Assembly: GCF_039555335.1 (NCBI RefSeq)
Contig: NC_092637.1
Location: 38,590,526 to 38,654,525 of the forward strand
Origin: Amphiura filiformis
Lineage: Eukaryota > Echinodermata > Ophiuroidea > Amphilepidida > Amphiuridae
DNA length: 64,000 nt
Reading direction: 5' to 3'
In this document: positions 4,833 to 41,000 of the stretch, piece after piece
Layout: every line of letters begins with the position of its first letter
How positions within the stretch are numbered: the first letter of the stretch is position 1
Notes under the pieces: generated by a model
Told to the model about the DNA's origin: nothing
Seen by the model: the letters and a program-made list of their open reading frames with translations, nothing else
Databases searched by the model: none
Translations under genes and position numbers: made by a program

Positions 4833-5087
4833 TTCTTGTTGGATGTGGTGATGGTGAAGAATGTAGTGGAGACTCAGGATGTGGCGTCTATCTAACTGGA
4901 AACGGATCCAACCCAGAGGAGCTACATTTTCAAAAAATAATCTCGTTGGATCAAGTACCTATGGGTATTACGCATGACCCTGAAACTGGCGAGATATATA
5001 TCGCGGAGCAAAAAAGGCGGATCCTAAAGGTCCATGTCAATGGAACAGGAAATTATGTGCAAACCGTCGTTGATTTACGAGGACATG
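4833..5087 (+). CDS. GPCR exon 1 visible: Cys-rich lead and propeller blade 1
   Basis: Acceptor TATTTCAG, donor GGACATG/GTGAGT; starts with 2 nt of a split codon and ends in phase 1 (84 full codons). It encodes CGDGEECSGDSGCG, a short cysteine-rich lead, then MGITHDPETGEIYIAEQKRR, a first blade in which YIAE stands in for YWTD. NGT and NGS glycosylation sequons are present. The acceptor shows that at least one coding exon precedes it. Confidence 0.85.
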
Positions 5088-8000
5088 GTGAGTGTGCTTA
5101 TGTCTTATAGTGAAATTCCATAGCCGTGGAGTGGCTGCTTCCTGGCTTGATCAGCAATCGACGTTTTTTTAAGGACGTGTACAGTTGAAGCAAGTTGTTG
5201 TTTGCTGTATCAAGCCCAGGTAGACATTATTATAAATCCTGTTCCATCAATCTCCAGTGCAGCAACTGTTAACATCAGGGAATCACATTACAGTAGTGGC
5301 TACTCCCTTCTTGCAGACCAGGAACTGTTGGTATTTATAAGGTGTTGAAACCAACGTGCCAAGCCATCACCCTTTAGGCTGGTCACGGGATCCGGGTCCT
5401 ATGTAGGGAAGTAAAGCTTGGTCATTTATTCAACTTCAGGTAGGTCGAGTGGTGGCATATATACGGACGATTCACAAATTCCCAGTTTCCAAAGTGTCTG
5501 TTGTTGCGTGCAAGCCATAGAGTGTATGTTGCTCTTAATGCTGTTCTCGCCACAGTATCCAGTGCCTTTTTGGTTTCTTTGTTTGTGAGGCCAAAGAACT
5601 TGAAGCAGGTTCCAAGTGTGTTATTTGTGAATCCTTTAGATCCCACCATGATGCAGTCATGTCTACAGTAGAATTCACCACGACCTTTGCCGGACTTAAA
5701 CCCCATTAAAAGCTATTAAACCAAGATAACACTCATTGAAAACAGTTCAACTGATTAAATAATATCTTCTCTGGTTAAATACACACAACATATGTTTCTG
5801 CTTTACACGTACAATGGAGCAATGAGCTGGGATTATAGTTTCAGTTGGGTGAACGATTATAAAGCGAGCGCTAGAGAACAATTCTGTGTGGGCTTTTGTT
5901 TACGAAATGAGACAATACGTGCTTATTGTTAACCAGCGTTCTTGAAAATGAGAAGCATGGTGGTTTGCAGACTTAACACGGTTTGGAAATAATTTCTTCA
6001 TATTTTTTGGTGTTATCTGTCGTTTACATATCCTTCCTAAAACACCAAAGTACGCATATTTCCAAACATCTAAATTAGCTAAAAATTTAGGACATGTTAC
6101 AAAACTATATTTTCTAGAATTTTAGAAGAGTACTTTTAATATTGGCCGGTTATTTTTCACACAGCGACGTTAACTAGGCAATGTACTATTACCTATAACA
6201 TACACTAAACAGGGGCGGATCCAGGAATTTTTGATAGAGGGGGCGCCTTTTGGTCAACGACGAAAAAATGGTGTTAAGGGGGTTACCCCCTCGAAAACTC
6301 AACGGTTTTGGCCCATTGTTTGCTGCTCATGGCCGAATTTGTTCATTTTTTTAAATTTCTTTCATTTTTTGTATTTTAAGTTGGGCCGGCGCCCTTTGCT
6401 AGGCCAAAAATAGAGGGGGCGCGCGCCGGCTGCGCCCCCCCCCCTAAATCCGCCCCTGCTAAAACACCAAAGTTCGAATATTTCCAAACATCTAAATTAG
6501 CTAAAAATTTAGGACATGTTACAAAACTATATTTTCTAGAACTTTAAGAAGGTTGGCCTGTGCTAAGTTCTCCTCAGCAGGTACTGTGAGTTCAATTATG
6601 ATGCCTTGCTTGTCTGATGGTGAGTAGATATAGACAGTTATGTCTGGCCTTTTCGATGTTGTCACTATCTCTGGAGGGAACATAGCTGGGCAATTGTCTT
6701 CATCCCGCACTACTTGCCAGTCCTCACAGCTTTGGATGACGTTGTCTTTCTGGGTTCTGTGCCATGCTACATTTCTGTGCTTTGTTCCAGTCTCAGTTCT
6801 GAATGAAATGCCGGTGACATTCTGTTGATCTCCGTCGCCTACAGTCCCACATCTACCTTTCAAAACAGCAGGAACTAGTTGGTGGACTATCTCTCGGAGT
6901 ACCATGGCATGTCTCCAGTCGTAACGGCCTCTTCTAAGAGAGTACTGGCAGCAGTTGAATAAGTGCAGCATTGTGCAGTCACAGAGAGTGCACGGATGTA
7001 GTGGGTGTTTGTTCCAGGGCTTCAAGTTGGCAGGTGAGGGTAGTGACGTGTCATGAATTGAGTTGAGGTAAAATGTCAGCATCTCAGGTGACCAGGAGTA
7101 GAGGAGACTATTCCATCTTGTGTCCATGTGCATGGCAGTTTCCCATCCGAGGAAGCGACCTTGTTTTGCCATTCCATATAGGGAGACAAGTAGGTGCTCT
7201 TCTGAGACATCTTTGGTAATGGATAATAGCGTGCTCCTATGCTCTTGCTTAGACATCTGCTCTTGGCGTTTCTGACTCTTATAAAGCCCAGGCCCTGGCG
7301 ACCATGTTGCCCTCTGCAAAGCTCGTTGATAAAAACATGTCTTTCTCTTTCATGCAGCTCTTTCACACCATTCCACTGTTTCTTTCCTCTCTGTCTCTGC
7401 TCTATGTGACCATAGATGAACTGTGTCTCCTCGTCACAGGGTATGGGATGGCATTGGTTCCTGGAGCAGACTTATTCCTCTTTCTCAGTATTACTTCCTC
7501 AAGTTCTGCCATGGATGGCGGATCTTCCGACAGTTGGTACTGGTGCCTTGGAGCTGCAGGTTTTGGAATGTCAAGGGATTGTATCGGTAATCTCGCTTTT
7601 TGTCTTGATAAGTTGTGCTGAAATAGTTATTCGCTACATCTGTGGAGAAGCCTGCATGGTGCTGCTTGCGCTGCTTTGACAATGTTTAAGGTCAAAGAGC
7701 TTCTTAGCGTACTGGTGAGGGTTTTTATAAAACGCCTCCTGTGCAAGTCGCTGACTTATCTTTCTTTTCTCTTTGAGCTCCATTTTCCTGATCTTATTAT
7801 GAAGTCTCATTGCTTTCAGGAACTCTTGCTTCACTTTCAGTATTTCATGGTCTGATTTGTTGTCTTTCATTGCATTCTTCTTAAGATCTTGTTTCATTTT
7901 GCGAAGTCTTTTCTGTTGGCGAGACTTTTGCACTTTCTTCTGATCTTTTGCTTTGGGTGGTTGTTTGACACCGTAAATTTTATCTTCTTTCTAGCTCTAC

Positions 8001-38000: not shown

Positions 38001-41000
38001 GGCTACTCTGGGAAAGATTAAAATTTGTTCCGGATTTTGGAGGTTGACTTACTTTGCTCAAAACCTATTTCAGTTGTTGCATAACTATGGCGGTCTTCCT
38101 TATACATCATGGCACGCTGTAAATGGCCAATTTTGTGATAAAGAATACGAAGGATCCAAACTCGTTAATAGCTCAAATAACTTAAGATTTATGTTTTATT
38201 TTACATTTAGGATGAGACAAGAGAGCCTTCGTGTCAGTTCGTGACATCAAAAGGGTGAGTAAATCTAGTCTCATTTCGTTTCGAACGTTCAACGCTAATA
38301 TTTCACACTTTCAATGAAAGCCCCTCTGAGCCCCCCGCAGGAAAAGATCCTGGACACGCCGGTGGTATCCCTACAGCAACACTTAATGCAATTTCCACAG
38401 CAACGTACACTTACCGTAATCTGGGTGTCCTCACTGAAACACTTATGCAATTTGCACAGTAACGTACATTTACCGTAATATGGGTGTCCTTACAGAAACA
38501 CGTTTGAAATTTACACAGCAATGTACGCTTACCGTATTCTGGGTGTCCTCACAAAAACACTTTCGCAATTTACACAGCAATGTACACTTACCGTAATCTC
38601 AGTGTCTTCACATAAACATGTTTACCATTTACACAGCAACGTACATTTCCCGTAATCTGTCTGTCCTTACAGAAAACATGTTCGCAACTTACATAGCAAT
38701 GTACACTTTCCGTAATCTGGGTGTCTTCACATAAATACTTATGCAATTTACACAGTAACGTACATTTACCGTAATATATATATCCTTAGAGAAACAAAAT
38801 TGCATAGTAACGTACACTTACCGACTGGATGTTCTCACAGAACCACTTTTACAATTTACACAGTAATGTACACTAAACACTTTTGCAATTTACACAGTAA
38901 TGTTCACTTATCGTAATCTGAGTATCCTCACAAAAACACTTTTGCAATACAACAGCGTACACTTCCCGTAATCTGGCGGTCCTCGCATTACTTGGATTAC
39001 TTGGATCCTGTGATCCTGAATTTGTTATCCAACGGATACTCAGTCGCGCCAAATACCGCACGAGATCCATCTATTCAGTTAGTTGCTTAAGGTGGTACTA
39101 CACCCTTTGATAAGTTATGTATATTATAGGAGCAAGGAATCCAGTTACTACACTGGAATTTCAGTGACTCAAGACAAGCGGTACGTTATTTATGATAAGA
39201 AAAGAGGTACCGCTAGAATGTACCTCATTTCTTAACATACATAATGAACCATTTGTCTTGAATTTCAGTGAAGTAATTGGATTCCTTGCCCCTAAATATA
39301 CATAACTTTTGTTACCAGTGTGTATAGTTATTTTTTGAGAAAAATGCAAAATTAGTCAAAAAATTAATCAGGGGGGTGTAGTACCACCTTAAGCAACTAA
39401 CTGAATAGATGGATCTCGTGCGGTATTTTGATAGGGTGCCTTAATGTTATAAAATGTTATAAAACCATAAATTCTTTTCACTTCAAAAGGATCCAATAAA
39501 TAATAAACGTTCAAATTATCAGTGCTGACGATTCTTCAGACATCTTAAATATGCCGAACATTTAGATCGATATTATTGTATGATTTGTCTCAGATCGTGG
39601 TCTGAAAAAGGATGTAGTGTTAGTGGATCCAACAATAGTCACGTCACATGTAGCTGCAATCATATGACTAGTTTCGCAGTGTTGATGCAGGTTGTTGAGG
39701 TAAGGTGTTTAGTAGCATACACCCCCACCCACCCGACACACACACACCCACCCACCCCCACACCCCACCCCACCCCATACACTGCACACACACCCCTAAT
39801 GTCATAAGAAAACATTTTATGAAAACATAGAAAATAATTAGGAATTTGTCACATAAATCCTCCGATCGATGTGTGATATGTCATGTTAAAGAAAAAAAAA
39901 TAGTTGTTTAACTTGATTATACATTTTCGAAGACACCTACCGTGTTTTGCACAACAGTTCTTTTAAACTTTAAAGCGTGTATTACGGGAACAGTGACGTA
40001 ATAATAACTGCATACTATTATGTAATATTAAAATATCTTTTAATTCAGGTTGAGATATCAGCTTCTAATCAGAAGGCGTTATCTGTCTTAACATATCTCC
40101 TTCTACCCGTGTCCATTCTGTGTCTGGCCGCTACCATCATATTATTCATAGTCAGCAAGTAGGTTATGTTTTTCCTTTCTTTCTTAATAATAGAGGCATA
40201 TATTAAAGGGTATAAAACGTTTTAATTACATTAAAAAAACATTTTTGAAAACTTCATGCAAAACATTCTAAACAGAATGTTATTTTAAAAGTGTTGACAA
40301 AATATTTGGCAAACTTTTAGCCAAACATATTTTACAATAACGTTTTAAAAACGTTTTTATGACATTTACATAAGCCGAGATTTAATAAAAACGTTTTGAA
40401 TTAACTTTTTAAGAACATTTTTGTGTTTGTGGGTTACTGATATGTTAAACTTGCCCGGTGTTTTTACAATTCTGCTTTGCCGACGGGTAAGTACCAAATT
40501 CGGGCCCTGATTATACCGAGGTGAAATTATTTCATCTGTATATTAGCTAGAATTCAGTTAGTATTTTCTTGGCGCAACCAACTGGTGAAATTCCTAGTAT
40601 TATACCCAGATGATGGCCGAACTGTTCAGCAAGTACTTTTAGTTTTTGGTATATAGGCATCTGCGTCTGATACTAATGTAGTGGCATGACAAGTTAAGTT
40701 CAGCAAGTACTTTTAGTTTTTGGTATATAGGAATCTGCATCTGATACTAATGTAGTGGCATGGCAAGTTAAGTTAAGTTCAGCAAGTACTTTTAGTTTTT
40801 GGTATATAGGAATCTGCATCTGATACTAATGTAGTGGCATGGCAAGTTAAGTTCAGCAAGTACTTTTAGTTTTTGGTGTATAGGAATCTGCATCTGATAC
40901 TAATGTAGTGGCATGGCAAGTTAAGTTCAGCAAGTACTTTTAGTTTTTGGTATATAGGAATCTGTGTCTGATACTAATGTAGTTTTTCCTGTTTCCGATG

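What the first reader, a model, noticed from the sequence alone, without database searches (positions are those of the whole stretch)
4833..39699. Adhesion GPCR with a YWTD beta-propeller in front of GAIN/GPS
Seen: exons 1-4 encode about five LDLR-B-type blades (LLWADG, VYWTD, ERKLYAAG, LFVEL) and join in phase to a GAIN/GPS region and seven helices. Known: vertebrate adhesion GPCR subfamilies use other ectodomains (olfactomedin, LRR, EGF, cadherin, pentraxin), while YWTD propellers are typical of LDLR/LRP, nidogen and EGF precursor. Inference: a propeller ligand module controls a tethered-agonist receptor, a combination that may be lineage-specific.
Basis: partly seen in the sequence, partly recalled or inferred. 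Interest (0 to 1): 0.75.

Follow-up and report, generated by a model that had tools for sequence, protein, structure and literature searches.

The report
Adhesion receptor with LDL-receptor-type propeller
An animal gene appears to encode an adhesion-type G-protein-coupled receptor whose outer end is an LDL-receptor-like propeller, a pairing we did not find described, although RNA evidence that the two halves form one protein is still missing.

Summary
I built a 20-exon, phase-consistent model on the + strand, 81-50796, ending in a stop (807 aa): candidate signal peptide, YWTD-type propeller (exons 1-4), putative GAIN region (exons 5-9), GPS with an HMT motif and Stachel-like strand, complete 7TM (7tm_2 3e-39). 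The propeller is real: on exons 1-4 Ldl_recept_b (24.3 bits, cut-off 21) and the related SGL propeller (28.1, cut-off 26.3) both pass, and the best PDB matches are LRP4, LRP2 and LRP6. The weak point is the 23527/35086 junction: canonical sites, in phase, no alternative internal exon outside a LINE at my thresholds, but no transcript. A short terminal exon or a separate receptor start in the 11.6-kb gap is not excluded. The GAIN fold is inferred, the signal exon is near chance level, and one exon (TM5) lacks an AG acceptor. Nine paper searches on this combination showed no adhesion GPCR with this domain; no animal proteome could be searched. Best reading: a new ectodomain variant of a known receptor class.

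The parts
81..120 (+). E0, candidate start exon with signal peptide (MKTILSVCLFVYL + VLVG from E1); ATGs at 66 and 75 in the same frame
   Evidence: hydrophobic core, donor 7.0, phase 1 into E1; but 14 distinct donor sites pass the scan on the two strands of the window (this one included), 3 of them (this one included) at least as good as this one in both measures, so near chance level
4833..5087 (+). E1, phase 1-1, Cys-rich N-terminus and first propeller blades
   Evidence: acceptor 10.6, donor 10.2; no Pfam hit alone
17269..17419 (+). E2, phase 1-2, blade with LLWADG
   Evidence: Ldl_recept_b 14.2 bits, below cut-off; 16.8 bits
19052..19167 (+). E3, phase 2-1, blade with VYWTD
   Evidence: Ldl_recept_b 18.3 bits, below cut-off; 20.3 bits
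23240..23527 (+). E4, phase 1-1, last propeller blades (KLYAAG, SLLFVE)
   Evidence: no Pfam hit alone
23528..35085 (+). intron 4 (11.6 kb) with LINE pieces at 24123-28717; the critical unproven junction
35086..35204 (+). E5, phase 1-0, linker and start of putative GAIN
   Evidence: acceptor 6.3, weak donor 3.4
35726..35825 (+). E6, phase 0-1, putative GAIN helices
36740..36865 (+). E7, phase 1-1, putative GAIN
37662..37846 (+). E8, phase 1-0, putative GAIN subdomain B
38211..38254 (+). E9, 44-nt micro-exon, phase 0-2, PSCQF; restores the phase between E8 and E10 and may supply a GPS cysteine (inference)
   Evidence: splice score 18.6 against 10.5 for the only other candidate listed; but adding it did not lengthen or raise the Pfam GPS match (43.4 bits, profile 14-45; 45.3 without)
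39540..39699 (+). E10, GPS with HM/TSFAVLM cleavage motif and Stachel-like strand
   Evidence: GPS 3e-12 on the open frame 39529-39804 that holds it
40049..40158 (+). E11, TM1
41010..41109 (+). E12, TM2
44885..45035 (+). E13, TM3 and start of TM4
45792..45858 (+). E14, rest of TM4
46021..46087 (+). E15, CWL and TM5; no AG acceptor, an (ATT)n run reaches the exon
   Evidence: alignment to ADGRD1
47215..47300 (+). E16, end of TM5 and intracellular loop 3
47753..47879 (+). E17, TM6 and TM7
49951..49992 (+). E18, end of TM7
50707..50796 (+). E19, helix 8, short tail and stop

Best explanation
One gene (about 81-50796, + strand) encodes an adhesion GPCR. Its only recognisable ectodomain module is an LDLR-type YWTD propeller directly in front of the GAIN/GPS. 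Shown by sequence: the propeller repeats, the GPS with the H-X-S/T motif, a strand matching known tethered agonists, a complete secretin-type 7TM with stop, and a phase-consistent exon chain. Inferred: the GAIN fold, the signal peptide, the closed six-bladed ring and the single transcript. Mechanism, inferred from known adhesion GPCRs: the GAIN cuts itself between M and T of HMT; the two fragments stay together; the propeller binds a matrix or cell-surface partner; pull on or release of the propeller frees TSFAVLMQV, which enters the 7TM and starts G-protein signalling. The propeller block (E1-E4) has phase-1 introns at both ends, so it could have been added by exon shuffling.
For: Propeller: Ldl_recept_b above its cut-off of 21 on E1-E4 (24.3), on a 129-aa core that I trimmed (27) and on E1-E8 (22.4); best PDB matches LRP4/LRP2/LRP6, 7.6e-28 at best, a sum over repeats; shuffle control. 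Receptor: 7tm_2 3e-39 over profile 3-250 and GPS 4.9e-11; ADGRD1 5.2e-58; TSFAVLMQVV aligned with ADGRD1 TNFAILMQVV and ADGRL3 TNFAVLM. H-X-S/T as the canonical motif: PMC13062082, abstract. Join: 1-1 phase, GT/AG. Gap: 4 of 4 exon-like candidates with the right entry phase lie inside LINE sequence (the same thresholds pass 13 of 18 internal exons of the model); 42 acceptor-like sites gave no tail with a membrane helix among the 15 tails long enough to score, and three of the longer tails have no Pfam match. The whole chain reads through as one open frame.
Against: No transcript, no animal homologue beyond solved structures, no species. In-phase joining has a 1 in 3 chance at random, and several exon edges (E0, E9, E16, E18, E19) were chosen to fit the phase. 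The E5 donor is weak (3.4). A possible separate receptor start exists at 32704/32719-32782 (donor 10.1), and an in-frame ATG lies at 34995 in the open frame that holds E5. Of the 42 acceptor-like sites, 41 run to a stop within 900 bases, so a short terminal exon for E4 is possible. E0 is near chance level. In the full 807-aa query Ldl_recept_b falls to 20.2, below its cut-off; on E1-E4 SGL scores higher than Ldl_recept_b (28.1 against 24.3). E5-E9 have no convincing GAIN hit. E15 has no AG acceptor.
Confidence: 0.7

Rival explanations
1. Two neighbouring genes: a secreted single-propeller protein (E0-E4 plus a short unseen terminal exon) and a short-ectodomain adhesion GPCR that starts with its own signal exon in 23528-35085 or inside the E5 open frame.
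For: Candidate start exon 32704/32719-32782 (MHCIRTSLLLCLAV..., donor 10.1) in phase with E5; an ATG at 34995 in the open frame that holds E5; the gap is 11.6 kb; 41 of 42 acceptor-like sites run to a stop within 900 bases, so a short terminal exon cannot be excluded by scanning.
Against: Start exons of this kind are frequent (14 distinct donor sites on the two strands of the window at the thresholds). The candidate h-region is short and followed by RNSKWHK. The longest tail outside the LINE is 63 aa, without a membrane helix or a Pfam match. E4 and E5 fit in phase.
Confidence: 0.2
2. A decaying or mis-assembled copy: the gene once had this architecture but is broken by the (ATT)n run at E15, so no intact receptor is made from this allele.
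For: E15 lacks an AG acceptor, with (ATT)n right up to the exon.
Against: 18 of 19 introns in the model have both GT and AG, and the chain has no internal stop. Microsatellites are a common place for assembly error (general knowledge).
Confidence: 0.1
3. The N-terminal module is another six-bladed propeller (SGL/NHL-like), not an LDLR-type YWTD propeller.
For: On E1-E4 SGL passes its cut-off and scores higher than Ldl_recept_b (28.1 bits, cut-off 26.3, against 24.3, cut-off 21). SGL is just under its cut-off on E1-E8 (26.1). Designed Pizza propellers also match, at 1.4e-08.
Against: The best 24 of 38 PDB matches are LRPs or VLDLR. On the core, Ldl_recept_b passes and SGL does not (27 against 23.2). 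SGL matches in one stretch, 63 of 246 profile positions. The VYWTD motif itself is present.
Confidence: 0.15

Closest known systems
ADGRD1 (GPR133)
   Same: best solved relative of the GPS-7TM part (5.2e-58); nearly the same tethered-agonist strand
   Different: pentraxin-type ectodomain (recalled), not found here; this gene has a YWTD-type propeller
Latrophilins ADGRL1-3
   Same: adhesion GPCR with a beta-propeller in the ectodomain (olfactomedin; PMC4396693, abstract); GPS and 7TM similarity
   Different: olfactomedin propeller plus lectin (abstract) and hormone-receptor domain (recalled); none found here
LRP4, LRP2, LRP6, LDLR
   Same: YWTD/LDLR-B blades
   Different: those are single-pass receptors with LDLa and EGF modules (general knowledge); no LDLa or EGF was found here, and the anchor is a GPS-7TM
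Amphioxus adhesion GPCRs with novel ectodomains
   Same: invertebrate adhesion GPCRs with shuffled domains; the paper lists Kringle, somatomedin B, SRCR, C-type lectin, LDLa, CUB and TNFR (PMC2246102, passages)
   Different: LDL-receptor class A is listed there; class B is not in the passages seen

Membership tests
Adhesion GPCR (class B2) | secretin-type 7TM domain | tested here: met
   7tm_2 3e-39, profile 3-250 (includes E15 with its non-AG acceptor); first half without E15 3.1e-18, profile 3-145
Adhesion GPCR (class B2) | GPS with H-X-S/T motif | tested here: met
   GPS 3e-12 on the open frame holding E10; HMT at 516-518 of the model; motif definition PMC13062082. Only profile positions 14-45 match
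Adhesion GPCR (class B2) | tethered agonist after the cut | tested here: met
   TSFAVLMQVV aligned with ADGRD1 and ADGRL3; sequence only, activity untested
Adhesion GPCR (class B2) | GAIN domain fold before the GPS | tested here: inconclusive
   no Pfam or PDB hit on E5-E8; on the longer queries the good matches are the GPS; weak ADGRG6 match at E 0.12 from query residue 158. Low conservation of GAIN is documented (PMC11697300, abstract as listed)
Adhesion GPCR (class B2) | adhesive ectodomain on the same polypeptide | tested here: inconclusive
   in-phase exon chain, no transcript
YWTD / LDLR class B propeller | LDLR-B repeats above the curated cut-off of 21 bits | tested here: met
   24.3 on E1-E4, 27 on a trimmed core, 22.4 on E1-E8; 20.2, below, on the full protein. 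SGL scores higher on E1-E4
YWTD / LDLR class B propeller | six blades closing a ring | tested here: inconclusive
   six units by eye; two score in the profile scan, two others are negative; structure prediction switched off
LDL receptor family | LDLa and EGF modules with a single membrane span | tested here: not met
   none in the Pfam scan of the full model
Latrophilin | olfactomedin and lectin domains | tested here: not met
   none in the Pfam scan of the full model

The most novel reading that the evidence does not exclude
An undescribed kind of adhesion GPCR in which an exon-shuffled LRP-type YWTD propeller is the sole ligand module and sits directly on the GAIN, so that a ligand of the LRP/Wnt-antagonist or matrix type would pull on a tethered agonist and be read out as G-protein signalling.
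Probability: 0.45. Interest if true: 0.65.

Novelty: new variant of a known kind. Interest (0 to 1): 0.5.

Why it matters
If true, it adds another propeller type to adhesion GPCR ectodomains, beside olfactomedin and the EAR/EPTP repeats of ADGRV1 (the latter recalled). It would connect a ligand module known from LRP receptors to tethered-agonist signalling. It would also be a compact test case for how a module bounded by phase-1 introns is added to a force-sensing receptor, because the ectodomain has only one recognisable module before the putative GAIN.

Tried and rejected
Rejected: a direct E8-E10 join (phases 0 and 2 do not fit); the micro-exon 38211-38254 solves the phase, although it does not improve the Pfam GPS match. 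Considered and not preferred: a 36-nt intron 45859-45894 that would make the (ATT)n run coding (read). Led nowhere: own-genome search (none held); relatives in viral contigs (0 relatives for either half); NCBIfam on the propeller (0 families); species identification (no eukaryote collection to search).

Papers: 10 searches. One search was for mechanism. The other nine were on this domain combination or on adhesion GPCR repertoires: 0 papers; 87, 20 listed; 200, 20 listed; 3; 0; 22, 15 listed; 96, 15 listed; 9; 0. Their listings showed no adhesion GPCR with a class B/YWTD domain. I saw listings for most papers; passages of PMC2396169, PMC12716839, PMC4302439, PMC2246102, PMC13197933, PMC11697300 and PMC13062082; abstract and outline of PMC4396693 and PMC13062082. 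The library lacks most subscription papers. In PMC2396169 the Ciona 'LDL receptor repeat GPCRs' carry class A repeats on rhodopsin-type receptors.

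Full report
What is there. Four exons at 4833-5087, 17269-17419, 19052-19167 and 23240-23527 on the + strand have GT/AG sites and compatible phases and join to a peptide of about 270 residues. A Pfam scan of the exons singly gave Ldl_recept_b below its cut-off on exons 2 and 3, and nothing on exons 1 and 4. Joined, Ldl_recept_b reaches 24.3 bits against a cut-off of 21; it is 27 with two stretches on a 129-residue core that I trimmed, 22.4 with E5-E8 added, and 20.2, below the cut-off, in the whole protein. SGL, another six-bladed propeller family, scores higher on E1-E4 (28.1, cut-off 26.3). 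Against solved structures the peptide matches 38 sequences at E up to 1: LRP4, LRP2, LRP6, LRP8, VLDLR, LDLR, nidogen and two designed Pizza propellers. The best is LRP4 at 7.6e-28, a sum over many repeats; the best single stretch shown in that chain has 3.5e-5. A profile from 16 LRP blades gives 34.7 bits; of 500 shuffles, 275 had any hit and the best was 4.6; the E5-E8 peptide gave no hit. That scan marks exons 2 and 3, while its stretches in exons 1 and 4 have negative scores. By eye I read six units (GVYLTG, EIYIAE, KLLWAD, FVYWTD, KLYAAG, SLLFVE), which would be a complete ring. This was not tested by structure.

The receptor. The open frame that holds the GPS exon 39540-39699 has Pfam GPS at 3e-12. 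The assembled model is 20 exons and 807 residues, with consistent phases and no internal stop; 18 of its 19 introns have GT and AG. Pfam 7tm_2 covers 3-250 of 250 at 3e-39. The best solved relative is ADGRD1 at 5.2e-58 (100 matches, 60 shown). Between exons 8 and 10 the phases did not fit; a splice-site scan found a 44-nt exon (38211-38254) with a score of 18.6 against 10.5 for the only other candidate listed, and it restores the frame. It did not improve the Pfam GPS match (43.4 bits, against 45.3 without it).

How it probably works. The GPS reads NHM/TSFAVLM, with the cut expected between M517 and T518 of the model. H-X-S/T is the canonical cleavage motif and a Gly-Cys motif is highly conserved in GPS-active receptors (PMC13062082, abstract and passages); both are present (HMT, and KGC). 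That paper also shows that the motif alone is not sufficient, and the further phenylalanine it names could not be placed here. The strand after the cut aligns with the tethered agonists of ADGRD1 and ADGRL3. The inferred mechanism is therefore the standard one: self-cleavage, a non-covalent pair of fragments, ligand or force acting on the N-terminal fragment, and release of the agonist strand into the 7TM. That the propeller binds a ligand is inference from LRP receptors and from latrophilins, whose olfactomedin propeller lies in the N-terminal region that binds FLRT (PMC4396693, abstract).

The critical junction. Exon 4 ends and exon 5 starts in phase 1 with GT and AG. By chance two unrelated exons would fit one time in three, so this alone is weak. 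In the 11.6 kb between them I scanned for internal exons with the required entry phase (acceptor and donor scores of 5 or more): 4 candidates, 4 of 4 inside the LINE at 24123-28717. The same thresholds recover 13 of 18 internal exons of the model, so an exon could be missed. Of 42 acceptor-like sites, 41 run to a stop within the 900 bases read; the other lies in the LINE. Fifteen tails are 19 aa or longer; their highest 19-residue hydropathy mean is 1.39, inside the LINE, so no membrane helix. The longest tail outside the LINE is 63 aa; it and two other longer ones have no Pfam match. A short anchorless terminal exon is thus possible. Also against the fusion, a start exon that could serve a separate receptor exists at 32704/32719-32782 with a good donor, and an ATG lies in the exon 5 open frame at 34995. 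Such start exons are frequent: 14 distinct donor sites on the two strands pass the scan, mine at 81-120 included, and 3 of the 14 (mine and two in a tandem repeat at about 12 kb) reach its level in both measures. The signal exon is therefore a candidate only.

Other weaknesses. Exons 5-9 have no convincing sequence match to a GAIN domain. GAIN domains are known for low sequence conservation (PMC11697300, abstract as listed), so the label rests on position. Exon 15 has no AG acceptor because an (ATT)n run reaches it; this may be an assembly error or a damaged allele. The species is not known, and no animal collection could be searched; two searches of viral contigs found 0 relatives.

Novelty. 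Invertebrate adhesion GPCRs with unusual ectodomains are well known: amphioxus has Kringle, somatomedin B, SRCR, LDLa and others (PMC2246102, passages), and sponges have SRCR (PMC4302439, passages). A survey of choanoflagellates and other relatives of animals names PQQ and RLD among conserved ectodomains, and its one mention of an LDL domain is LDLa on rhodopsin-type receptors (PMC12716839, passages). A 2026 review has no mention of YWTD or propeller in the held part of its text (PMC13197933; about the first 300,000 of 412,533 characters are held). The nine searches on this combination or on adhesion GPCR repertoires showed no adhesion GPCR with a class B/YWTD domain in their listings. This is absence from a partial view of a partial library, not proof of novelty. 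I therefore class it as a new variant of a known kind.

Noticed in passing
window 9004-11432 (+): Non-LTR retroelement in intron 1: endonuclease and reverse-transcriptase matches in two overlapping frames (RVT_1 passes its cut-off in the second, the others are weaker).
   Followed up: partly
window 24123-28717 (+): Second LINE in the critical intron 4; endonuclease and reverse transcriptase by Pfam at 26054-28717, with an upstream cysteine-rich frame 24123-24866 without a Pfam match.
   Followed up: partly
window 56223-56864 (+): 214-aa frame that looks like a GIY-YIG endonuclease of a Penelope-type element by eye; no Pfam match at E 0.01.
   Followed up: no
window 38373-38874 and 45137-45521 (+): The same 59-bp minisatellite family in two introns of this gene, about 6 kb apart.
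   Followed up: partly
window 45895-46087 (+): The (ATT)n run directly before exon 15 is open in the exon's frame; with a 36-nt intron it would code a poly-isoleucine stretch in extracellular loop 2.
   Followed up: no
window 40624-40983 (+): 74-bp tandem repeat ending 26 bases before the TM2 exon.
   Followed up: no
window 14405-14476, 37897-37971, 51568-51654 (+): tRNA-like sequences inside or after the gene (Rfam for the first two, ARAGORN for the last two), perhaps heads of tRNA-derived SINEs.
   Followed up: no
window 57273-57797: 230-bp tandem repeat with 98% matches, 2.3 copies.
   Followed up: no
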